This document shows, piece after piece, positions 18,106 to 39,660 of a stretch of DNA of 64,000 bases; within the stretch, counting starts at the first letter, position 1, and each line of letters opens with the position of its first letter. Source of the DNA: Vogesella indigofera. Its GTDB lineage: Bacteria > Pseudomonadota > Gammaproteobacteria > Burkholderiales > Chromobacteriaceae. The notes under the pieces are model-generated. The model was not told where the DNA came from and did not search any database. It was given only the letters and a program-made list of their open reading frames with translations. The translations under genes were made by a program, and so were the position numbers. The stretch spans positions 62,001-126,000 of the forward strand of contig NZ_RBID01000011.1 in NCBI RefSeq assembly GCF_003633895.1, in the 5' to 3' direction.

Positions 18106-18582
18106 ATGAGCAAATGGATCGCACTCGTCACTAGCTCCCCCTCTGATCGTGTCCCGAATCAGAGACAGGCACGCCATCGTCTTGAAGAGGCAGGAGCTGC
18201 CGTTCTTCGCGATGATATCTATCTCATGCCAGAAAGCGACGCCTGTCGCACGATGCTGGAGACGGTTGCGTCAGACTTCCGTTTGGCAAAGGGGCTTGCC
18301 TTTGTGATCAGTATTGAGGAACCGAGTGGAGGTGATTTTGCCAAGCGGTTTGACCGGGGAAATGACTATGCAATTCTCGTGGCCAGGATCGCCGCCATCA
18401 GAGACAGCTTGGCTGCAAGCTCGGCAACCGAAGCGGTCACGCAAGTTCGCAAGCTAAGGGCAACCTTTGCCTCATTATCCGACATTGATTTTTTCCCAGG
18501 GGAGAGTCGGAAACAAGCTGAGTTGGCATTACTGGGGTTAGAGCAAGTGGTTACTGGGGATCCTGATTTTCCTGCAGCGTGA
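18106..18582 (+). CDS. ChrB N-terminal-domain protein
   Basis: A 158-residue protein resembling the N-terminal regulatory half of ChrB, the chromate-resistance regulator (…RHRLEEAGAAVLRDDIYLMPES…, then the FDRGNDYAILV region). Full ChrB is about twice as long and has a C-terminal domain absent here. No chrA chromate transporter is nearby. It could be a stand-alone regulator or a remnant of a chr operon. The ATG at 18106 has no strong ribosome-binding site. Confidence 0.65.
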   Translation: MSKWIALVTSSPSDRVPNQRQARHRLEEAGAAVLRDDIYLMPESDACRTMLETVASDFRLAKGLAFVISIEEPSGGDFAKRFDRGNDYAILVARIAAIRDSLAASSATEAVTQVRKLRATFASLSDIDFFPGESRKQAELALLGLEQVVTGDPDFPAA

Positions 18583-18622
18583 AGGCTGATGAGTAGCCAT
18601 CCAAATGGGAGGCCACATTGCT

Positions 18623-20233
18623 TTAGTCGGCAATGGCTTGTGGGTCGAGGTTAGTGTTCTCGTCTGCGACAGCCCGATTTCGCCCGGCAACCTTGGCCGC
18701 ATACAGCGCTTTATCGGCGGCGGAAAGCAGCTGCTCAGGATAACTGTTGCTCCCCGGCACCTGAGTGGCAATACCGATGCTGATGGTGACCATGCCATTG
18801 ACTGGCGACGCCGCGTGCGGGATACCCAATGCTTCAATCGCCATGCGTAGCTGCTCGGCTTTGGCCTTGGCGTGCACCGGTTCACAGTTGGGCAACAAGC
18901 AGACGAACTCCTCGCCGCCATAGCGCGCCACCACATCGTGTGCGCGCCACAAGCGTTCTTGCAGCGACTTGGCCACCAGTTTGAGACAGTCATCGCCGGC
19001 CTGATGGCCGTAGTGATCGTTGAACAGTTTGAAATGATCGATATCGATCATGAGCAGAGTGAGATGGGTCTGATGCCGTCGACAGTCGCGCCACTCTTTT
19101 TGCAGCCGCTCGTTGAAATGACGACGATTGGCAATGCCGGTCAGGCCATCCTGAAACGCCAGGGCGTGGAGTTGCGCACTCTGTGCTTCCAGCTGAACAT
19201 TCGCCTCTGCCAGCTTGGTGTTTTGTTCACGCAAGGCCGCGGCAGCACGAGCCGCACTCTCCGTTTCCCGCTGACGCCGGCGTTGCCAGATGGCGAGCAT
19301 CACCGTACTGAACAGCGCCAGAATGGCATAGACACTGCCCCAGACTTGCACCATCGAATACCAACCAGAATAGAGCGTTTCTGTACTGCGGCTGACACCA
19401 ACAATCAATGCCTTGTCCATGTTGAGCGCGGCGGGTCGGATCGTGCGTAGCGCCACCATCCGTTCTTCGTTGAGTGCAGGTGAAAAGCCGGTCATCACCA
19501 TGGCGCTCAAGCCGCTCTGTTTGTAGCGATTGAAGAGCGGTTCGGCTTGGCTCAGATTCGTACCGACCAGATGTTTGCGTTCCGGCATCATCATGAAGTG
19601 CACCCCATCGCCATGAGCCAGGCCCGTCATCATGTCGGGGCTATAGTTGACGGAGGAAAGCAGAATCCGGAATTCCTCAGGATCAAGTGAGGCGATCACC
19701 AGCCCATCAAAATGACCATCCTTGCCCGGTATCATGCGCGCGACGGTGAGCAACCAGATGTTTTGCTCGGTTTTGAACGGCGCATTGACATAAAGCGTGG
19801 AGGGGTCAGGCTGCTTCAGCACCGTCTGAAAGTAGGGGCGATCAGCAAAGCCCCTGCCTATGAGGTCTGTTCGGCTACTCGCCCGGATCACACCGTGCTT
19901 ATCCATGATCGAGAAGCTGCGGATACCGACCATGGCGTCGGCAAATGCTTTCAATCGTAGGCTTCCGGCCACCACGACCGTGTTTTGTTTGTGCCATGTC
20001 GGCACATTCTGAATGACGTTGTTCAGCGTCCGGCTGAGAGCATCCAGTTGACGGCCAATATTGGCCTCGACGACCTGCGCTTGTGCCGCCAGGTGGAGCT
20101 GCTCACGGTGGTCTACGGCTTGATGCTCTTCAAACAATGACCATGCCACCACGCCACCTGCCAGCACCAGACAACAGGCCAGGAATAGCCACTCGCCTAA
20201 AAAGCGAAAACGATAGGACGGTAATGAGATCAT
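18623..20233 (-). CDS. Cache-domain GGDEF diguanylate cyclase
   Basis: A 536-residue membrane sensor: helix near 12-32, periplasmic double-Cache-like sensor (about 35-300), second helix near 310-330, short coiled coil (345-385) and a GGDEF domain. YGGEEF near residue 438 is intact and RAHD gives a consensus RxxD inhibitory site. An active cyclase responding to a periplasmic ligand is expected. It is convergent with the ChrB-like gene, 40 bases apart. Confidence 0.9.
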   Translation of the reverse strand: MISLPSYRFRFLGEWLFLACCLVLAGGVVAWSLFEEHQAVDHREQLHLAAQAQVVEANIGRQLDALSRTLNNVIQNVPTWHKQNTVVVAGSLRLKAFADAMVGIRSFSIMDKHGVIRASSRTDLIGRGFADRPYFQTVLKQPDPSTLYVNAPFKTEQNIWLLTVARMIPGKDGHFDGLVIASLDPEEFRILLSSVNYSPDMMTGLAHGDGVHFMMMPERKHLVGTNLSQAEPLFNRYKQSGLSAMVMTGFSPALNEERMVALRTIRPAALNMDKALIVGVSRSTETLYSGWYSMVQVWGSVYAILALFSTVMLAIWQRRRQRETESAARAAAALREQNTKLAEANVQLEAQSAQLHALAFQDGLTGIANRRHFNERLQKEWRDCRRHQTHLTLLMIDIDHFKLFNDHYGHQAGDDCLKLVAKSLQERLWRAHDVVARYGGEEFVCLLPNCEPVHAKAKAEQLRMAIEALGIPHAASPVNGMVTISIGIATQVPGSNSYPEQLLSAADKALYAAKVAGRNRAVADENTNLDPQAIAD

Positions 20234-20511
20234 GTCTTATTCATGTATTGAAAATACAGTATTACCGTCAATCTACCGCGTTTCCTTTTAACAATCTTCA
20301 CCAATTTCGAAATTGGTAGTGGTTTATGACCTGCAGATTCCAGTGAGTCTGGTCAGCGGTGCTTGTCGTCGCTGCCCATTTCTAGCTCCTTGTGCTGGTG
20401 GTGCTCCCCCCCCCTCCTGATCACTGAGAGTGCGTCTGAAGTTCGGCCAGAGCGGCCGTCCCAGCCAATCTCCGGAACGACGGCTCCCAGTTACAAACCG
20501 GGCATTCTCCC

Positions 20512-20719
20512 TTACCTGGAAAGAAAACCCAGCAACACAGCCACGATAGCCCCCCGGCGCATCCTCTTGTACCAAATGCCCTGCGCAGGCAATCTCTCGT
20601 AGGGCTGCGCCGGGGATGGTTTGCTGCAACTGCCGGCCACGTATCCATTGATCGTCTTCTCCCCATAGTACCAAGCTCGGGCCGCACACCTTCGGCCAAG
20701 GGCTGCAGTCTCCCCCACG
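20512..20719 (-). pseudogene. Alpha/beta-hydrolase C-terminal fossil
   Basis: One minus-strand frame reads SLVLWGEDDQWIRGRQLQQT and continues to ACAGHLVQEDAP, the acid- and His-bearing end of an alpha/beta hydrolase. The expected ending GAIVAVLLGFLSR is found in another frame, so there is a frameshift near 20557 and the N-terminal half is gone. The rest of the 20234-20753 gap holds no gene. Confidence 0.7.
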
Positions 20720-20753
20720 TGCAGGCATACTCTTTAAATACATGGGGAAATGA

Positions 20754-22019
20754 ATGAATAAGCTCTTGGCATTGCCAGTTGCAGGTGACTCGTTTCTGCT
20801 TCGGCGTGGGGACCGGAACATCCTGGTGGATGGTGGATATGGTAGTCGGGCATTGATTGCGGCACTTTCCGCTCCCAGTGTGGCTGTCAACCATCTACAT
20901 ATCGTGGTCTGCACGCATGCAGATAAGGACCACGCTGGCGGCCTGACGGATCTGCTGGAAAAATCCTCAGTTCGGGTCGACGAGTTTTGGCTGCCAGGTT
21001 CCTGGGCGGACTCACTGCCAGCACTCTTACAAAGCCCTCAGCGGGTGGTAGACATACTAGTGGCGGAGCTTGACGAGTTTTCGTCGGAAGAGGCGTACAA
21101 CCACGATGAGGATGACGACAAGTTCGAGTCGCGCGTGCATGCCCGCATCGCCGAGGAGCGGCGCAATTTCCAACTTAATCGCGTGGGCGATGGAGTTCGT
21201 GCCGATCCAGAACGCCAGGATATGGAGTCGGGTCTGGCATGGTTGAAGACTCAAGCTGCAAATCTTGAACTCGATGCAGCCAATGCGACTGCTTCGGCCA
21301 AAGCATTCATCAGGGGGCGGCGGCTAGTCAGGTATCGTGCAGCAAGGAGAGCGTTGGATCGGCGGTGGGCCGCTTTCTGGATCAGTTTGATCGACACCGC
21401 AGAGCGGATCCGCAAGATCGCGGTTCAGGCAATTCGCTACAACGTCAAAGTGCGTTGGTTTGACTTCGGCGAATTCGCCAAGACACGTCGCGCATCTGGA
21501 GGGGAGCCGGGCCTGCTGATTCCTTTGAACGCAGTCGAACTCGTGGTACCTCCGCGCCCAATCAACGTGATGAAGTACATGGTTCGATTAACACCGGTGA
21601 ACGAAGAGAGCTTAGTATTCTTGTCATCCAATTCCTGGGAATGGCCAGATGGGCTCGGCGTGGTGTTCACCGGAGACTCTCCACTGGGAGATGGACCTGG
21701 TTACAGGCAGAACTTGTTGGATTGGCGGCAGGAACCTCGTGGATGGGTTGTTGCCACAGCACCTCACCACGGATCCGAAAGCAATGCGGTTGCTTACAAG
21801 CATCTCCAGGCAATGACTCATGTCGTGCTCTGGTTACGGTCGGGTGGATCATCCCTGCATCCGGGGCCAACCTTCCGGAAGTTACACCCAACGGTACGAG
21901 GGTGTACGCATTGTCCCTATCGGAGGCTCGAGCGGGAGGTGGCCGAAGTGCAGCTGTCACCCCCGTTTCCCTTCGGATGGCCTTTATTCCGGGTCAGGGC
22001 TCACGACTGCAACTGCTAA
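20754..22019 (+). CDS. Metallo-beta-lactamase-fold hydrolase, candidate defence gene
   Basis: A 421-residue MBL-fold protein. THADKDH (54-60) is the metal-binding HxHxDH-type motif with Ala in the second position's place, ILVDGG (23-28) precedes it, and FTGDSP plus APHHGSES provide later ligands. A ~150-residue charged helical insert (about 100-250) separates the two halves. A CTHCPY cysteine pair lies near the end. Substrate (nucleic acid or phosphodiester) is unknown. GGGGA lies 6 bases before the ATG. It is convergent with a KAP NTPase gene; both look like island cargo. Confidence 0.72.
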   Translation: MNKLLALPVAGDSFLLRRGDRNILVDGGYGSRALIAALSAPSVAVNHLHIVVCTHADKDHAGGLTDLLEKSSVRVDEFWLPGSWADSLPALLQSPQRVVDILVAELDEFSSEEAYNHDEDDDKFESRVHARIAEERRNFQLNRVGDGVRADPERQDMESGLAWLKTQAANLELDAANATASAKAFIRGRRLVRYRAARRALDRRWAAFWISLIDTAERIRKIAVQAIRYNVKVRWFDFGEFAKTRRASGGEPGLLIPLNAVELVVPPRPINVMKYMVRLTPVNEESLVFLSSNSWEWPDGLGVVFTGDSPLGDGPGYRQNLLDWRQEPRGWVVATAPHHGSESNAVAYKHLQAMTHVVLWLRSGGSSLHPGPTFRKLHPTVRGCTHCPYRRLEREVAEVQLSPPFPFGWPLFRVRAHDCNC

Positions 22020-22212
22020 CAAGGACACCATGCCAAAGCTCTGCGAACCGTCTTAGAGTAAGGACACTAACTGCCAGTGAATTCAATGACCGCATAGACA
22101 AAAGAAGGAGACAATTGAATTTCGACATCGATTGACTGACGGAACCACAATAACTACCGCAATATGGTGCGTAGCACACCTTTCTGGCCGGTTCCGTATC
22201 GACAGTCCCCCG

Positions 22213-24546
22213 TTAGAAATCGAATGGGACATACTCTCTTAGCCCGAGCCACTTCTCAAGAGATCTATGTAACGTTCGCAGGGCCTCTTCGTACTCGGGG
22301 AATTCTGCGGAATTGATCACGTCGCATTTAGCCTTCGCCACGCCGATGCCGATGAAATCGTCGATGGTCTCTCTGTTAAAACTGTAGTGCGGCGTGGAGA
22401 CCCGATCCCCCAACGAGTGGGTCGTGCCCCGGCTCATCATGCGAGAGGCCATTCTTGCGAAGCCTTGATCGGTCCGGATTGCCCTCACCATCCACTCGCG
22501 AGGTTCGTCCAATGAGCCCGAATAGTCCCTCCATCGGTAGAGCAGGGACACGAGATCCGATTCAGCGGTCAGCGCGTCGACGTCCGTCGCCCGACTCCTG
22601 ATCAGCAGCAGCCATTCGGCCTTCATCGCCTTAACAGTGTCGAGGTCAAGCGCCGGATCGAAGGCGTCACCCTCATTCCGATCAGCTGGATCGTTCAGAT
22701 GGATCAGGATTGCAGCGATGGACAGCGCCTTGGTCTGGCGGAGAGCCTCGAGTACCAGACCATCTCGCCTCCCCTGCGGAATTCGCTTCAGGAACCAGCT
22801 CGTTGCTCGCCATGCTGAAACCCAAGGCGAACTGAAGTGATCGGCTTTGCCTTGGTCCACGATTTTCTGGGCAATCTCAAACATCCCTGGCAACAGCACA
22901 GCGGCATTTTCAACTGGGAGGCGGTCGACCGACTCGTCGAGTCTCACGACAAGCGAGAGCAGTAGGCCATCGTTCTCTAAAGCGGTGATCGCGGCAGCAA
23001 ACCCATCCTTAGTCTCCGTCGCCTCGAGGAACGTGACGAAACGGCTTTCCGACATTTCGCCGACAGCTGTTTGGAGTTCGAAGTAACGCGGGAAGTAGCG
23101 CGAAGAACATACCCGTTTTTCGGTCAACCAATTGTTTTGGAAGCCATCCGCGTAGTTCGTGCCCCCGTATGCCCATTCGAGAGGTGGGAACAGTTCCTTG
23201 AGCGCGTCCCGGACGATGACGCGACGCTCTTCCGATACAATACCGAGCAGCCGCTCGGCTGCCGCCTTGTCCGCATCTCGTCTGCCATAGCCCAGGAAGC
23301 GGCGTTCCTGAAGCACCAGCTCCCTCTCCCGGAACAACGCCTCGTGAAGGCCGGGTTCGAAGACCCGGAGTGCCTCCAGAAGAAGGAAGTCAACAATATT
23401 CACCTCGAACACCTCGCCGGATGCATGCAATGGCATATGCACGGCGATGGATGAGGTCAGTCGGCGAGCGTCACGCATGTTACGCAGCAGAGGCTGAATA
23501 CAGCCAACTAGGGCGTTACCCCAGCGTCTCTGCGAGAACCCGTTCTCCTCGGTTGCGTAGATCCCCGCCAACTCGGAGAGTTCTTCCCCGAATAGACGAT
23601 GCACAATCGACGCCGGGACCGCCGGCAAGTCGAAGTTAGCCTGCACGACCTTCTCGAGGAAGGCGCGACCGTCGCCATCAGCGACCGGATCGAGAGCCCG
23701 TTCTACGATGCTGGGCTGGAACAGCAGTACAAAGATGATGTTTGGTAGATTGGCGTTTGCTTTTACCTGCCGTAGGAGTAACCGGATCTGCTCGGGCTCG
23801 AGTCGGTCGATGTCGTCGACAAAGACGACCAGCGGCCGGTCAAGTTCGCGAAGCCGATCCTCCAGCGCTTCGCGCACCTTGCCGAGCGGTTCGTTGCCAC
23901 GGTCGCGCCCGAGATACGACAGCACGCGCCCCAGCAGGGACGTGCCGACCGAGAGGACGGCGAGAGCGGCCGCCACCTTTGCTGCCTTCGGTAGGTTGAA
24001 ACCTATGGCCGAAGCTACGGCGATTACCGAAACGTTCGTCAGTATCGTCGAGATGAAATGGTTCGAATCCCCGGTCTTCTTAAGCGGCGCACTGGCCCCT
24101 GTGAGGATCGCACTGTAGCGTCGCAGCGCTTCGGCTCGGGCGAGTGCTGGCTTCGAATGCTCTCCCCCTAGACGATCTGCTATCTGGCCGAAGAGGGCAC
24201 GGGCGATCGCGTCGCCGTCGCCCCACTGCCAGGGGTTGAAGTCAAGCCAGTCCGCTCCGTCGCTGGCGTCAAGCCGCTCGGTGATTAGGTTCTTAAGGGA
24301 GGACTTGCCGAAGCCCCACCCTCCGCGGATTGCAAACACCCGGCCCTCGCGCAGACTGAGCTCCGAGAGCACGCCGGCTATCCGGTCCGCGAAGTTGGTC
24401 CTTCTTAGGCGATCCTCGGAAGCTTTCCGGATTGGTGCCTCCGCACCGATACCGCCATCCGGCAGTTCAGCCCTTGAAGCCTCTGCACGCTTCCTCGCAC
24501 GGCGACGGGCAAACCATGCCGACAGACGTACCAGAAGCCTAGTCAT
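22213..24546 (-). CDS. KAP-family P-loop NTPase
   Basis: A 777-residue protein of the KAP family (PF07693), which includes the phage-exclusion protein PifA. Walker A is GGWGFGKSS (75-83), followed by WLDFNPWQW; two membrane helices (about 165-183 and 189-213) are inserted before Walker B LVVFVDDIDR (239-248), the family's characteristic layout. The C-terminal ~450 residues are helical and unassigned. A role in membrane-linked antiviral defence is inferred from family and context only. It is monocistronic with an AT-rich upstream region. Confidence 0.82.
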   Translation of the reverse strand: MTRLLVRLSAWFARRRARKRAEASRAELPDGGIGAEAPIRKASEDRLRRTNFADRIAGVLSELSLREGRVFAIRGGWGFGKSSLKNLITERLDASDGADWLDFNPWQWGDGDAIARALFGQIADRLGGEHSKPALARAEALRRYSAILTGASAPLKKTGDSNHFISTILTNVSVIAVASAIGFNLPKAAKVAAALAVLSVGTSLLGRVLSYLGRDRGNEPLGKVREALEDRLRELDRPLVVFVDDIDRLEPEQIRLLLRQVKANANLPNIIFVLLFQPSIVERALDPVADGDGRAFLEKVVQANFDLPAVPASIVHRLFGEELSELAGIYATEENGFSQRRWGNALVGCIQPLLRNMRDARRLTSSIAVHMPLHASGEVFEVNIVDFLLLEALRVFEPGLHEALFRERELVLQERRFLGYGRRDADKAAAERLLGIVSEERRVIVRDALKELFPPLEWAYGGTNYADGFQNNWLTEKRVCSSRYFPRYFELQTAVGEMSESRFVTFLEATETKDGFAAAITALENDGLLLSLVVRLDESVDRLPVENAAVLLPGMFEIAQKIVDQGKADHFSSPWVSAWRATSWFLKRIPQGRRDGLVLEALRQTKALSIAAILIHLNDPADRNEGDAFDPALDLDTVKAMKAEWLLLIRSRATDVDALTAESDLVSLLYRWRDYSGSLDEPREWMVRAIRTDQGFARMASRMMSRGTTHSLGDRVSTPHYSFNRETIDDFIGIGVAKAKCDVINSAEFPEYEEALRTLHRSLEKWLGLREYVPFDF

Positions 24547-25009
24547 CGCGCAAAAACTCCCATGAGAGCGTCGGTCCCGGCAAAGCTGCAGTTCATTGGC
24601 ATCGAGGTGGGATGCGGCAGTTCAGGCATCGGGATAGAAACTCTCGAATATCTCCCGCCCCTCTACCCCCGCAACCGTTTCCAATATTTATTTGGCACAT
24701 AGTTATATTCCATATATCCCATCATCTTTACGCATCTTAGCTTATTCCATACGCAAACAGCGGGGCAACCGACAAATGTCGAACTGACGGCGAGCGATAG
24801 CTCAGGCCGAGTTGGAGTCCTTGAACGTTCGTTCTGTAAGATTGCTCCACTCAGATAGCTGCTCTAGTAACTCTCGTGGCTAAAGCAGCAGTGGGTCGAT
24901 TGCAGACATTCCCACTCGTACTGACGATCGACCGCTTTGGCCGACGTCCGGCCAGTGCCTTGATGGGCTGGCTGCAGATCGGCCAAAGTTGGCCTTGAAA
25001 GGTATCCGG
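24547..25009. other. AT-rich upstream region and GC hairpins, no gene
   Basis: The first ~200 bases are AT-rich (24680-24760) and should contain the KAP promoter. The part from 24890 to 25005 is GC-rich with GGCCGAC/GTCCGGCC and GGCCAAAGTTGGCC-type inverted repeats resembling intergenic repeats at 10.07 kb and 20.43 kb. No reading frame of note. Confidence 0.5.
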
Positions 25010-25543
25010 TTATTGTGGCAGGCGAATCTCGGTCAGATGCCACGACACCAGATTGTGTCGCTGCAGAACCAGGTTGATTGTTTGATCCGGTTTGTCGCGC
25101 TGATAGACCTTGACCGTAAACTGGCTGAGTCCGTCGTAGCCCATCTTGAACTCGACTTTGTCCGCTTCATTGGGCTGTTTCTGCATGTTGGAATCCGTGG
25201 CTTCTGCAGTGGCCGCGGGCAGGGGTTTTTCACCCTGCATCATCATGGCGAGCCCCTGAGGCGAAACAATCGCATCAACCATGGCATTGACCAAGGCTCC
25301 GGCAAAAACAACCCCTACCGCGGCAAACGGGTTTCCCTGCAGTTTCTGCAGCATCTGACCGTTCAACTCGGCCTTCAGGTTTTCTTTGACGACAGGAAAG
25401 TCGACATAGCTGGCTAGCTTCGTCGCATTGCGTTCTTGGACTGCATCTTGCATACCATGTACTGCCATATACGGTGTGTAGTAGAACCAGCCGCTCACTG
25501 CGATAGCAGCAAGAGCCAAGCTGCCCTTCAACTTGTTATCCAT
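25010..25543 (-). CDS. DUF2939 protein
   Basis: A 177-residue protein of the DUF2939 family with one N-terminal membrane helix or uncleaved signal (about 5-25) and a periplasmic domain beginning PYMAVHGMQDAVQERNATKLASYVDF. Function unknown. The start at 25543 is preceded by GGAAGC; the frame is open a further 21 bases but that start has no such site. No co-transcribed neighbour is evident. Confidence 0.75.
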   Translation of the reverse strand: MDNKLKGSLALAAIAVSGWFYYTPYMAVHGMQDAVQERNATKLASYVDFPVVKENLKAELNGQMLQKLQGNPFAAVGVVFAGALVNAMVDAIVSPQGLAMMMQGEKPLPAATAEATDSNMQKQPNEADKVEFKMGYDGLSQFTVKVYQRDKPDQTINLVLQRHNLVSWHLTEIRLPQ

Positions 25544-25990
25544 GGTGCTTCCTGTTAGGGGCATGATGATTGGTTATCTAGTTTGGATGTTACATTGACT
25601 TGATCCGTAATGGTCTGTGGATTGGGCTGTTGTTCTCGTTGGTGCTGGTGAGAGGCCTAGTGGGGTAATTATTGGCATCAACTGCCACACAGGCATTCGC
25701 GAGGTGTTCAAGGACTTATGGATGGAAGGGGTGGGCATCAAGTACAGGCAATGCCCAGGGGGTGCCACAAACCAGCAGGGAGCTTGTGATTACGAACTGG
25801 GAGTCGGCGGCAATGGCTGGGCTGTTCTAACGGTCAATGGTAAAGCCCGGCGATGGTGCCGGGGTTGTGCCAAAACAAGCGCAAATTATGCGGTGGAGTA
25901 GGGTGGTTGCCTGTGACAAAAGCAGCGCAAAACTGTGCCAGAAATAGCGCGAGGTTACATTCAAAAAATGGCTACCATGAATGGCTACCA
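25544..25990. other. Gap without recognisable gene
   Basis: A 94-codon plus-strand frame (25617-25901) is open but lacks a ribosome-binding site and family likeness. From 25870 on there are short degenerate repeats (AAACAAGCGCAAA, AAAAGCAGCGCAAAA, and ATGGCTACCAT twice), of unknown meaning. Nothing else seen. Confidence 0.45.
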
Positions 25991-26038: not shown

Positions 26039-26045
26039 GTGATGG

Positions 26046-26410
26046 TGGTGGAGGCGGCGGGAATCGAACCCGCGTCCGGAAATCCTACACAGAGAGTTCT
26101 ACATACTTAGTCGTGTCATTTGGATTTAACCTCCACTACGCCGACGGACAGGCTGAGCTTTGGCGAGTTACCTTTTGGTTCGCATTGTGCCAAGTAACCC
26201 GACACAACACTAGCAGATGTAAAGTGACACTACAGGGTTTTGACGCCCCCGGCCCATCTGCGAACCGTTGTAGTGTCTAGCCGGCCGTTAGGCTGCTAGA
26301 GCGTAGTTTTCGTCGTTTGCGACTAAATAAATTCAGTGTTTTACGGGAAGTCTGAGATCCCGGTATGCCCTCTTCTGCTTCGCAACCCCCGTCGAAACCA
26401 GGTCGCCCCC
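26046..26410 (-). ncRNA. ssrA: tmRNA (ssrA)
   Basis: Transfer-messenger RNA that rescues stalled ribosomes. The 5' end GGGGGCGACCUGGUUUCGACG (minus strand, from 26410) pairs with CGCCUCC before A-CCA at 26046, forming the acceptor stem. The T arm GGGUUCGAUUCCC is intact. The tag frame at 26320-26288 reads ANDENYALAA then TAA. Length is about 365 nt, normal for a one-piece tmRNA. A terminator follows at once. Confidence 0.95.
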
Positions 26411-37138: not shown

Positions 37139-39660
37139 GGCGTCGCGCCCTGGCTGCTGTTGGCCGGCTGCGGCGGTACGGCAGACTGCGCGCTGGTGGC
37201 CGCAACTCCCGCCGGTGCCGCGCAGACGCGGCGGAAGTCGTGCTGTAGCTCGCCGTCGCAGTTGAACGGCTGCGGCTTGGCCACGGCGTAACCCTGCGCG
37301 TAGTCGACGCCGATGTCGGCCAGCGCCTGCAGCATCGCCGGTGTTTCCACGAATTCGGCAATGGTGCGTTTGCCCATCACGTGGCCGATGTGGTTGATGA
37401 CCTCGACCATGGCGCGGTCGATCGGGTCGTCGAGCATGTCCTTGACGAAGCCGCCGTCGATCTTCAGATAGTCCACCGGCAGGTGCTTCAGGTAGGTGAA
37501 CGAGGACATGCCGGCGCCGAAGTCGTCCAGCGAGAAGCGGCAGCCGAGGGTCTGCAGCTCGGTGATGAAGTGGATGGCGCTGGCGAGATTGGCGATGGCG
37601 CTGGTCTCGGTGATCTCGAAGCAGATCATGCGCGGCGGGATCGCATGCAGGCGGAACTGTTCGCGCAGGAAGTCCAGAAACGCCTGGTCGCCGATGGTGG
37701 TGCCGGACAGGTTGATGGCGCAGGTGCCGATCGGCGTTGCCTTGTGGCAGCGCAGCCGCGCGGCGAGGATGGTGAACGCGTTCTGCACCACCCAGCGGTC
37801 GATCAGCGGCATCAGCCCGTAGCGCTCCGCCGCCGGGATGAAGCTGATCGGCGGCACCAGGCGGCCAACCTCGTCGTGCAGGCGCAGCAGCAGCTCGACA
37901 TGGCTGCCACTGTCGCTGTTGCTGCCCAGCGGCGCGATTTCCTGCGCGTACAGGCACAGCCGCCGCTCTTCCAGCGCCAGGTGGATGCGCTGCACCCAGG
38001 CCATCTCGCCAAAGCGCAGCGATAGTTCCGAATCGTCCGGATGGTAGAGCTGTACCCGGTTGCGCCCCTTTTCCTTGGCCATGTAGCAGGCGACGTCGGC
38101 GGCGCGCAGCGCCTCGGCCAGCGTGGTCAGCGCGCCGGTGATGTGCACCAGGCCGATGCTGACACTGACGTTGAACGGGCGGCCGCCCCACACGAAGTGC
38201 AGGTCCTGTACCGTCTGGCGCAGGCTTTCGGCAATCTGCAGCGCGGCATCGACCGGACATTGCTCCAGCAGGATGCCGAACTCGTCGCCGCCGAGGCGGG
38301 CGAGGGTGTCGCTGTCGCGCAGCCGCTGCTGCAGCAGCAGGCAGATCTGGCGCAGCAGCTCGTCGCCGGCGGCGTGGCCGCAGGTGTCGTTGACCACCTT
38401 GAACTGGTCAAGGTCGAGGAACATCAGTGCGTGCTGCTGGTGGCCTTCGTGCTGGCGGTCGAGATTGGCCAGTGCCTGCTCCAGCCGGTATTCGAACTCG
38501 CGGCGGTTGGCAAGCCCGGTCAGCGCATCGTGCGAGGCCTGCCACGACAGGCTGGCGATGTACTGCCGCTCCCGCGTCATGTCGTGCAGTACCAGCACCG
38601 CCCCGCTGATCTGGCCATCACTGTGGATCGGCGCCGCCACCAGTGCCACCGACACCGCGCTGCCGTCCAGGCGCACCATCAGCTGGGAGTGGCTGCTGCT
38701 GCCGTGGCTGTGGCCGCCGGCCAGGATTTGCTCGATCAGCACCAGCGCTTCCTGCTGGGAGTCCTCGTCGACGATGCGGAACAGCGAGCCCAGCGGCAGC
38801 CCCTGCGCCTGCGCCACCGTCCACGCCGTCAGCTGTTCCGCCGCCGGATTCATGTAGGCGGTCAGGCCGTCGGCGTCGGTGGTGATCACCGCGTCGCCGA
38901 TGGAGGCGAGGGTGACCTGCGCGCGTTCCTTTTCCGCCTGCAGCGCGCTTTCGAAGGACTGGCGCTGGCCCAGCAGCTTGCGGGTGCGGAACAGCGCCAG
39001 CAGGATCAGTAGTGCGGCGCTGGCCAGGTTGGCGGCCAGCAATAGCCGCTGGATGACGCGCGAGCCTTGGCCGAGGGTGTCGGAAAAGGCTTTCTCCATC
39101 GGGGTGAGGCGGTCGTTGATGGCGTAGATTTCCGCCTTCCACTCGACAATGTCGCGCGGGCTGGCCAGCCCGCCGCTGATCTGGAAGTGCATCTGCTCGG
39201 CCAGCCCGGTCAGCGCCTGCAGGTTGCGGTCGCCGAATTCCCAGTGCGCAATCGCCTGTTGCAGGTAGCTGAACTGGCGGAAGTTCTGGTACAGCCAGAT
39301 CAGGCCGGCAATGTCCTGCGGGTGGTTGCCGCCCTGCAGGAAGCCGGCGCGGGCCAGCGCCAGATCCGGCACCGGCTGTTCCAGCGCCATGCGCGCGGCG
39401 TGGTCGCCGAGCGGGATGGCGATGGCGGTCTGGTACTGGTGGAAGTGGCGTTCGTCGTGACTGTCGGCGTACAGGGTGAGATAGTAGATGGCATCTTTTT
39501 GCCCTTTGGACCACAGGCTCTCGCCGCTGACGTAGGCGCGCACCGCGGACTGGATCTCCAGGCTGACGCCGCCCAGTGCCGCCAGCAGCAGGGCAACGGC
39601 AATGAAGGGCCAGACCAGACCGGGCAGCTGTGTGGTATTGCGATTGCGGTGTTGTGTCAT
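37135..39660 (-). CDS. PAS-GGDEF-EAL c-di-GMP protein
   Basis: An 841-residue membrane protein: helices near 12-32 and 215-240 enclosing a periplasmic sensor region, then PAS (about 260-375), GGDEF (about 395-560; RLGGDEF with RDSD inhibitory site) and EAL (about 580-820). The EAL signature reads ELLLRL; the metal-binding Glu is kept. DDFGAGMSSFTYLKHLPVDY is intact, so phosphodiesterase activity is plausible. The start at 39660 is chosen because the 42 codons upstream are Arg/Pro-rich and unlike the family. Confidence 0.9.
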   Translation of the reverse strand: MTQHRNRNTTQLPGLVWPFIAVALLLAALGGVSLEIQSAVRAYVSGESLWSKGQKDAIYYLTLYADSHDERHFHQYQTAIAIPLGDHAARMALEQPVPDLALARAGFLQGGNHPQDIAGLIWLYQNFRQFSYLQQAIAHWEFGDRNLQALTGLAEQMHFQISGGLASPRDIVEWKAEIYAINDRLTPMEKAFSDTLGQGSRVIQRLLLAANLASAALLILLALFRTRKLLGQRQSFESALQAEKERAQVTLASIGDAVITTDADGLTAYMNPAAEQLTAWTVAQAQGLPLGSLFRIVDEDSQQEALVLIEQILAGGHSHGSSSHSQLMVRLDGSAVSVALVAAPIHSDGQISGAVLVLHDMTRERQYIASLSWQASHDALTGLANRREFEYRLEQALANLDRQHEGHQQHALMFLDLDQFKVVNDTCGHAAGDELLRQICLLLQQRLRDSDTLARLGGDEFGILLEQCPVDAALQIAESLRQTVQDLHFVWGGRPFNVSVSIGLVHITGALTTLAEALRAADVACYMAKEKGRNRVQLYHPDDSELSLRFGEMAWVQRIHLALEERRLCLYAQEIAPLGSNSDSGSHVELLLRLHDEVGRLVPPISFIPAAERYGLMPLIDRWVVQNAFTILAARLRCHKATPIGTCAINLSGTTIGDQAFLDFLREQFRLHAIPPRMICFEITETSAIANLASAIHFITELQTLGCRFSLDDFGAGMSSFTYLKHLPVDYLKIDGGFVKDMLDDPIDRAMVEVINHIGHVMGKRTIAEFVETPAMLQALADIGVDYAQGYAVAKPQPFNCDGELQHDFRRVCAAPAGVAATSAQSAVPPQPANSSQGATP

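What the first reader, a model, noticed from the sequence alone, without database searches (positions are those of the whole stretch)
20754..24546. MBL-fold hydrolase and KAP NTPase as candidate defence cargo
A 421-residue MBL protein with a large charged insert and a terminal CTHCPY, and a convergent 777-residue KAP NTPase with its membrane helices, sit between a hydrolase fossil and a conserved-looking region. KAP proteins include the phage-exclusion factor PifA. The two are convergent, so a single operon is excluded, but co-inheritance may still be real.
Basis: inference. Interest (0 to 1): 0.6.

Follow-up and report, generated by a model that had tools for sequence, protein, structure and literature searches.

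The report
Two separate phage-defence genes, one island
A bacterial genomic island carries two side-by-side genes that look like two independent anti-phage weapons, a cousin of a known phage-exclusion protein and a probable DNA-cutting enzyme whose relatives are built into several unrelated bacterial immune systems, but nothing suggests that the two work as a pair.

Summary
In detail: a 421-aa MBL protein (20754-22019, +) and a convergent 777-aa KAP NTPase (22213-24546, -), both intact. They lie at the tmRNA end of a 49.2-kb island that a close relative lacks, bounded by a 16-bp repeat of the ssrA 3' end. KAP matches F-plasmid PifA over nearly its full length (hhalign E 2.4e-34), adds a predicted membrane hairpin, and has 70-74% identical relatives on viral contigs, two near phage tail genes. 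The MBL is a ComEC-type nuclease relative with HxDxDH, a ~115-aa insert and a C-terminal Cys4 cluster. Relatives sit inside Ssp, BREX, DUF1156/PLD-helicase and DruE-helicase clusters; it passes no NCBIfam cut-off, and no protease was seen beside it. Co-inheritance is not supported: KAP in 0 of 9 MBL genomes/records, MBL in 0 of 11 KAP ones, no joint locus in 17 + 23. Best reading: two independently acquired antiphage genes, KAP acting like PifA and the MBL an orphan copy of a recurrent nuclease effector. The interest lies in this MBL branch, apparently protease-independent and shared by DNA-modification defences. No phenotype is known.

The parts
20754..22019 (+). MBL-fold protein, 421 aa: ComEC-type MBL nuclease relative with an insert and a C-terminal Cys4 cluster (orphan copy)
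20916..20933 (+). MBL motif II H-x-D-x-D-H (residues 55-60)
   Evidence: invariant in alignments A1 and A3
21021..21368 (+). insert of ~115 residues (90-205), low-confidence stretches at 115-123 and 139-157 in the model
21903..22016 (+). C-terminal Cys4 cluster C384-x2-C387 ... C419-x-C421
   Evidence: 3 of 4 Cys in 15 of 15 distinct family rows, all 4 in 14 of 15; absent from the host's own Avs1a
22213..24546 (-). KAP P-loop NTPase, 777 aa, PifA family
24298..24324 (-). Walker A (GGWGFGKSS, residues 75-83)
   Evidence: conserved in A2; motif name recalled
23806..23829 (-). Walker B (VVFVDDID, residues 240-247)
   Evidence: D244, D245, D247 invariant in A2; motif name recalled
23908..24060 (-). 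predicted membrane hairpin (residues 163-213)
   Evidence: hydropathy; no such segment scored in F-plasmid PifA
26046..26410 (-). tmRNA (ssrA), integration site of the island
26044..26059 (.). right att core GGTGGTGGAGGCGGCG; the left copy is at G000:C1:38875, outside the window
   Evidence: exactly two copies in G000:C1:1-466000, one in G004:C5
1..26059 (.). window part of the 49.2-kb ssrA island (G000:C1:38875-88059); integrase-like gene at G000:C1:39041-40243, outside the window
   Evidence: integrase read from sequence
20555..20734 (-). alpha/beta-hydrolase remnant
   Evidence: weak Pfam match below cut-off

Best explanation
The two genes are two independently acquired antiphage genes parked next to each other at the tmRNA end of a 49-kb ssrA-integrated island. 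SHOWN by computation: island boundaries, intact ORFs, homologies, neighbourhoods, absence of co-occurrence in the loci examined. INFERRED: function. KAP most likely works like F-plasmid PifA: a membrane-tethered P-loop NTPase that stays silent until a phage component engages it, then changes membrane integrity and ATP level so that the infected cell stops phage production. The MBL most likely is a metal-dependent DNase of the ComEC MBL type, held in check by its insert and stabilised by a C-terminal Cys4 (probably zinc) cluster, and released during infection to cut DNA. In relatives it is built into modification-based defence clusters, where it could be the cutting arm; in this island it is an orphan that acts alone or leans on partners elsewhere in the cell.
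For: Island: G000:C1:38785 and 88036 map to G004:C5:38562 and 38631; att repeat exactly at both ends. KAP: PADLOC PifA 266.8 bits over 33-757; hhalign of the family against F PifA E 2.4e-34 over 682 columns; six viral-contig relatives, 70-74% identical, full length or nearly so, one beside tail-fibre genes and one near a tail tape-measure gene, one beside type I RM genes, and a plasmid relative beside SspA, DUF4007 (SspB-like), SspC and SspD-like genes. MBL: best PDB match ComEC MBL domain 9ic4 by profile (E 6.5e-11), Foldseek (E 6.5e-6) and VIA (Z 18.3, rmsd 3.5, 236 aligned); the ComEC domain is a Mn-dependent nuclease needing the motif-II aspartates (PMC8579336, passages). Relatives in four kinds of defence cluster. 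PifA mechanism from PMC9311878 (passages).
Against: No activity or phage phenotype has been measured. The MBL in the window has no modification genes or protease among its nearest ORFs, so it could be a non-functional remnant of a larger system. The KAP model was too poor to use (pLDDT 56.6), so KAP rests on sequence alone. Three of 14 MBL contexts showed no defence neighbour (L045, L006, L106). The prophage-like contexts come from a viral collection, so they were bound to look viral. No relative of either protein was found among 50,697 phage records. The island also carries genes unrelated to defence, so location alone is weak evidence.
Confidence: 0.6

Rival explanations
1. The MBL and KAP form one two-gene defence system whose genes happen to be convergent.
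For: Adjacent, both island-borne, and relatives of each occur beside Ssp-type systems.
Against: KAP in 0 of 9 MBL genomes/records; MBL in 0 of 11 KAP genomes/records; 0 joint loci in 17 + 23 (controls 17 of 17 and 22 of 23); homology ends at each ORF.
Confidence: 0.07
2. The MBL is a leftover of a lost modification-based system (Ssp- or BREX-like) and no longer has a function, while KAP is active.
For: Relatives are embedded in such clusters; a hydrolase remnant and rearranged genes show decay in this end of the island.
Against: The ORF is intact, keeps all metal ligands and all four cysteines, and mismatches are concentrated at third positions (0.60 against 0.27 and 0.21); orphan copies also exist on phage-like contigs.
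Confidence: 0.2
3. The MBL is a gated pro-nuclease of the Avs1a/HamM/CanC type that needs a protease.
For: Same ComEC-like core; low-confidence insertions relative to ComEC; gated nucleases are recurrently acquired by defence systems (PMC12799240); the host itself has an Avs1 system whose protease could act in trans.
Against: NCBIfam Avs1a 39.2 bits against a cut-off of 420; no protease family found among the neighbours scanned in L004, L016, L018, L036, L043, apart from an IrrE-like M78 domain in L036; similarity to the host Avs1a is confined to the first ~75 residues; Cys4 is absent from it.
Confidence: 0.2
4. Neither gene is defensive: KAP serves a housekeeping membrane role and the MBL degrades nucleic acid for nutrition or repair.
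For: KAP and MBL superfamilies are functionally broad (recalled); no phenotype data.
Against: Rare, patchy distribution (MBL in 3 of 369 class and 3 of 398 phylum genomes, own genome included in both; KAP in 9 of 300 order genomes at E<=1e-20, own genome included), mobile contexts, PifA homology.
Confidence: 0.12

Closest known systems
PifA of the F plasmid (T7 exclusion)
   Same: KAP P-loop NTPase of similar length; homologous over nearly the whole length (hhalign E 2.4e-34, 682 columns; BLASTP 25% over 492 columns)
   Different: Two predicted membrane segments at 163-213 that hydropathy does not find in PifA; pifC precedes pifA in L129, whereas no ORF of 80 aa or more on the KAP strand lies between KAP and DUF2939; T7 exclusion untested
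Avs1a / HamM / CanC gated MBL pro-nucleases
   Same: ComEC-like MBL core with HxDxDH and insertions; recurrent acquisition by unrelated defence systems (PMC12799240)
   Different: Has a C-terminal Cys4 cluster; below the Avs1a cut-off (39.2 of 420 bits); relatives sit in DNA-modification-type clusters; no protease partner seen
ComEC/Rec2 MBL domain
   Same: Best fold and profile match in the PDB (9ic4); motif II with two aspartates as in ComEC
   Different: Not fused to a membrane channel; ~115-aa insert; Cys4 tail
6A-MBL system MBL protein (NF058524)
   Same: MBL fold annotated as anti-phage
   Different: 15.3 bits against a cut-off of 220
QatA KAP ATPase
   Same: KAP P-loop core
   Different: 36.9 bits against a cut-off of 600

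Membership tests
PifA (KAP exclusion proteins) | near full-length match to the PifA profile and to F-plasmid PifA | tested here: met
   266.8 bits, residues 33-757 of 777; hhalign E 2.4e-34
PifA (KAP exclusion proteins) | intact P-loop (Walker A and B) | tested here: met
   conserved in alignment A2
PifA (KAP exclusion proteins) | excludes T7-like phages | not testable with these tools
   needs plaque assays
QatA | NCBIfam NF041923 score above 600 bits | tested here: not met
   36.9 bits
Avs1a | NCBIfam NF041809 score above 420 bits | tested here: not met
   39.2 bits; positive control: host Avs1a 517.4 bits
Gated MBL pro-nucleases (HamM/Avs1a/CanC) | co-encoded protease | tested here: not met
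   the adjoining ORFs in the window are the hydrolase remnant, a GGDEF protein, KAP and DUF2939, none a protease; action in trans not excluded
Gated MBL pro-nucleases (HamM/Avs1a/CanC) | insertions that block the active site until cleaved | tested here: inconclusive
   insert present with low-confidence stretches 115-157 and 312-320; blockage not examined
ComEC-type MBL nuclease fold | MBL fold closest to ComEC with HxDxDH, conserved Asn, a D-S motif and HHG | tested here: met
6A-MBL | NCBIfam NF058524 score above 220 bits | tested here: not met
   15.3 bits
Ssp or BREX system in this island | SspB/C/D or BrxC/PglX/PglZ genes beside the MBL | tested here: not met
   not among the neighbouring ORFs; the genome-wide search for SspB (DUF4007) was uninformative because its controls rang nowhere

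The most novel reading that the evidence does not exclude
The Cys4-MBL proteins are a distinct, protease-independent branch of ComEC-type nuclease effectors that DNA-modification defences (Ssp phosphorothioation, BREX, DUF1156 methylase/PLD helicase, methylase plus DruE-like helicase) have acquired repeatedly as a plug-in cutting arm, and that also travels alone on prophages and islands such as this one; the Cys4 tail or the insert, rather than a protease, senses the trigger.
Probability: 0.3. Interest if true: 0.7.

Novelty: new variant of a known kind. Interest (0 to 1): 0.48.

Why it matters
How BREX stops phage is still unsettled (recalled). A nuclease gene lying between pglX and a pglZ-like gene, with relatives in three other modification-type clusters, offers a directly testable effector. 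It would extend the recent idea of recurrently acquired MBL pro-nucleases (PMC12799240) to a branch without a visible protease. The KAP half shows that PifA-type exclusion proteins, with an added membrane hairpin, occur on phage-like contigs and islands well beyond F plasmids.

Tried and rejected
A paired MBL-KAP system was tested and rejected on co-occurrence. Searches returned nothing anywhere and the tool warns that such an answer shows little by itself; the same queries do ring in other genomes, and one search has its own controls (17 of 17 KAP loci; 22 of 23 MBL loci, so one weak MBL locus was not recovered by its own family).

MBL as Avs1a, 6A-MBL, RNase Z or a beta-lactamase: all below NCBIfam cut-offs. 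KAP as QatA: below cut-off. KAP structure: model too poor (pLDDT 56.6), so it was not searched. Viral fold library for the MBL gave two unnamed matches at E <= 0.001, not followed. The phage record collection held no relative of the window MBL, the window KAP or the L110 MBL, and no E. coli genome held the L110 gene at near identity: these count against a common phage gene among sequenced phages. Promoter and terminator scans were at chance level. A host Ssp system could not be excluded. L113-L118 match only part of the N-terminal MBL region and were left out of the family alignments and the context tally, though included them.

Papers: the print searches cover only an open-access library without preprints; no paper describing a Cys4-MBL branch in BREX or Ssp turned up in their listings, and PMC12799240's main text holds 'BREX' and 'Ssp' zero times, but its supplement was not readable. 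Seen: PMC12799240 abstract and introduction, passages, first part of Results and section 8; PMC8579336, PMC9311878, PMC10952713 passages; PMC8565338 searched for six terms, none present.
Full report
CHECK. Pfam supports both names well above cut-off. In pairwise comparison with the nearest relatives found, KAP has dN about 0.17 and dS 1.7-2.1 in three pairs; for the MBL dS is saturated, but mismatches concentrate at third codon positions. Both look like maintained genes.

ISLAND. The window is G000:C1:62001-126000. The close relative G004 matches G000:C1 up to 38785 and again from 88036, with 68 bp between the two matches in G004 (38562 and 38631). A 16-bp core, GGTGGTGGAGGCGGCG, occurs at 38875 and at 88044 and nowhere else in the first 466 kb of the contig, and once in G004:C5. 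The right copy overlaps the 3' end of tmRNA (26046-26410, -). A gene that reads like a tyrosine integrase lies at G000:C1:39041-40243 (named from the sequence, not by a family search). So MBL and KAP are tmRNA-end genes of a 49.2-kb ssrA island. Their GC3 (0.60, 0.69) is lower than that of three genes beyond tmRNA (0.85-0.90). In the 13 genomes of the genus, only the own genome has the MBL (1 of 13; the second, weak match there is the Avs1a gene noted below).

KAP. The PADLOC PifA profile matches 33-757 of 777 with 266.8 bits. The F-plasmid PifA (741 aa, product 'phage T7 exclusion protein', behind pifC) aligns at 25% over 492 columns by BLASTP and over 682 columns by hhalign with E 2.4e-34. 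KAP differs by two hydrophobic segments at 163-213; segments in that region score also in four relatives examined but not in PifA. Six viral contigs carry relatives at 70-74%: in L105 it lies beside tail-fibre and tail-fibre-assembly genes and in L102 near a tail tape-measure gene; in L104 beside hsdM- and hsdR-like genes. A wider profile scan gave 10 loci, six of them the same contigs. In Rhizobium pTi plasmids a 52.6% relative lies beside SspA, a DUF4007 (SspB-like) protein, SspC and a PAPS-reductase protein 65% identical to the SspD of L004. No relative was found among 50,697 phage records. PifA is reported to alter membrane integrity with loss of ATP and to be activated by T7 gp1.2 and gp10 (PMC9311878, passages); that mechanism is carried over here by homology only.

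MBL. Family members in alignment A1 (9) and A3 (9, three shared, so 15 distinct rows) all keep D26, H55, D57, D59, H60, N283, D308, H338, H339 and three C-terminal cysteines; 14 of 15 keep the fourth. The best solved match is the ComEC MBL domain, a Mn-dependent nuclease that needs the motif-II aspartates (PMC8579336, passages). The model (pLDDT 72.6, pTM 0.80) has low-confidence stretches in the insert (115-157) and at 312-320. These recall the gating insertions of HamM, Avs1a and CanC pro-nucleases (PMC12799240), but the protein is far below the Avs1a cut-off, resembles the host Avs1a only over the first ~75 residues and has a Cys4 tail that this Avs1a lacks.

CONTEXTS OF THE MBL FAMILY. Merging near-identical copies, 14 loci were seen: L004, L005, L006, L016/L017, L018, L036, L037, L043, L045, L106, L107, L108, L109, L110-112. 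Five sit in a same-strand defence-type cluster: L004 (MBL, DNA-phosphorothioation-associated methyltransferase, SspB, SspC, SspD), L018 (BrxC, small ORF, PglX, MBL, PglZ-like, a 438-aa ORF without PDB match, helicase), L016/L017 (DUF1156, MBL, PLD-type helicase), L037 (two methylase-like ORFs, MBL, PIN-domain ORF, DruE-like helicase) and L107 (a helicase that by eye resembles that of L016). L043 lies by transposase-like genes that resemble by sequence those beside the host Avs1a; L036 lies by an HTH/M78 gene and an FRG gene with a weak PADLOC candidate match; L005 is a truncated copy behind an integrase 86% identical to that of L004. L108, L109 and L110-112 are phage-like contigs, but they came from a viral collection, so that is partly by selection. 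L045, L006 and L106 showed no defence neighbour. No trypsin- or caspase-type protease was found among the neighbours that were scanned, though not every ORF was scanned.

PAIR OR NOT. KAP was sought in 9 genomes or records with the MBL: 0. MBL was sought in 11 with KAP: 0. No locus had both, in 17 KAP loci and 23 MBL loci, six of the latter weak N-terminal matches. DNA similarity to the closest relatives ends at the borders of each ORF, 20754-22021 for the MBL against L004 and about 22212-24562 for KAP against the viral contigs. Numbers are small and the genomes are a sample, but all these tests point the same way.

CONCLUSION. Independent antiphage cargo on one ssrA island: a PifA-family exclusion NTPase with a membrane hairpin, and an orphan Cys4-MBL nuclease of a branch whose relatives are wired into modification-based defence. 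Function is inferred throughout; the computations show homology, context and mobility only.

Noticed in passing
G000:C1:380000-386865 (L046), outside the window: The host genome carries an AVAST type 1 pair, Avs1a (517.4 bits, cut-off 420) and Avs1b (1992.8 bits, cut off by the stretch), next to transposase-like genes that resemble a Tn7-like set (recalled).
   Followed up: partly
window 18577-20446 and 25011-25554: The GGDEF gene region and the DUF2939 gene that flank MBL and KAP are immediate neighbours in the opposite order elsewhere in relative G004 (C5:233.7-236.1 kb), so the island end is rearranged.
   Followed up: partly
window 25822-25959 and G000:C1:38688-38785: About 98 bp near the right end of the island repeats (89%) just outside its left end; G004 has a copy by the tmRNA. 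It may mark an earlier or tandem insertion.
   Followed up: partly
G000:C1:57312-63571 (to window 1571): The island also holds what reads like an RND metal-efflux set and, further left, a 2161-aa autotransporter-like ORF; named from sequence by eye only.
   Followed up: no
L110:5122-7290, L111, L112: In phage-like contigs a 275-290-aa protein with hydrophobic N-terminal stretches directly precedes the MBL, a possible two-gene module; no Pfam or NCBIfam match for the first protein.
   Followed up: partly
L021:7911-8914 (Massilia forsythiae plasmid): A broken PifA-like KAP gene (67.5% identical pieces) beside transposases and mercury-resistance genes.
   Followed up: no
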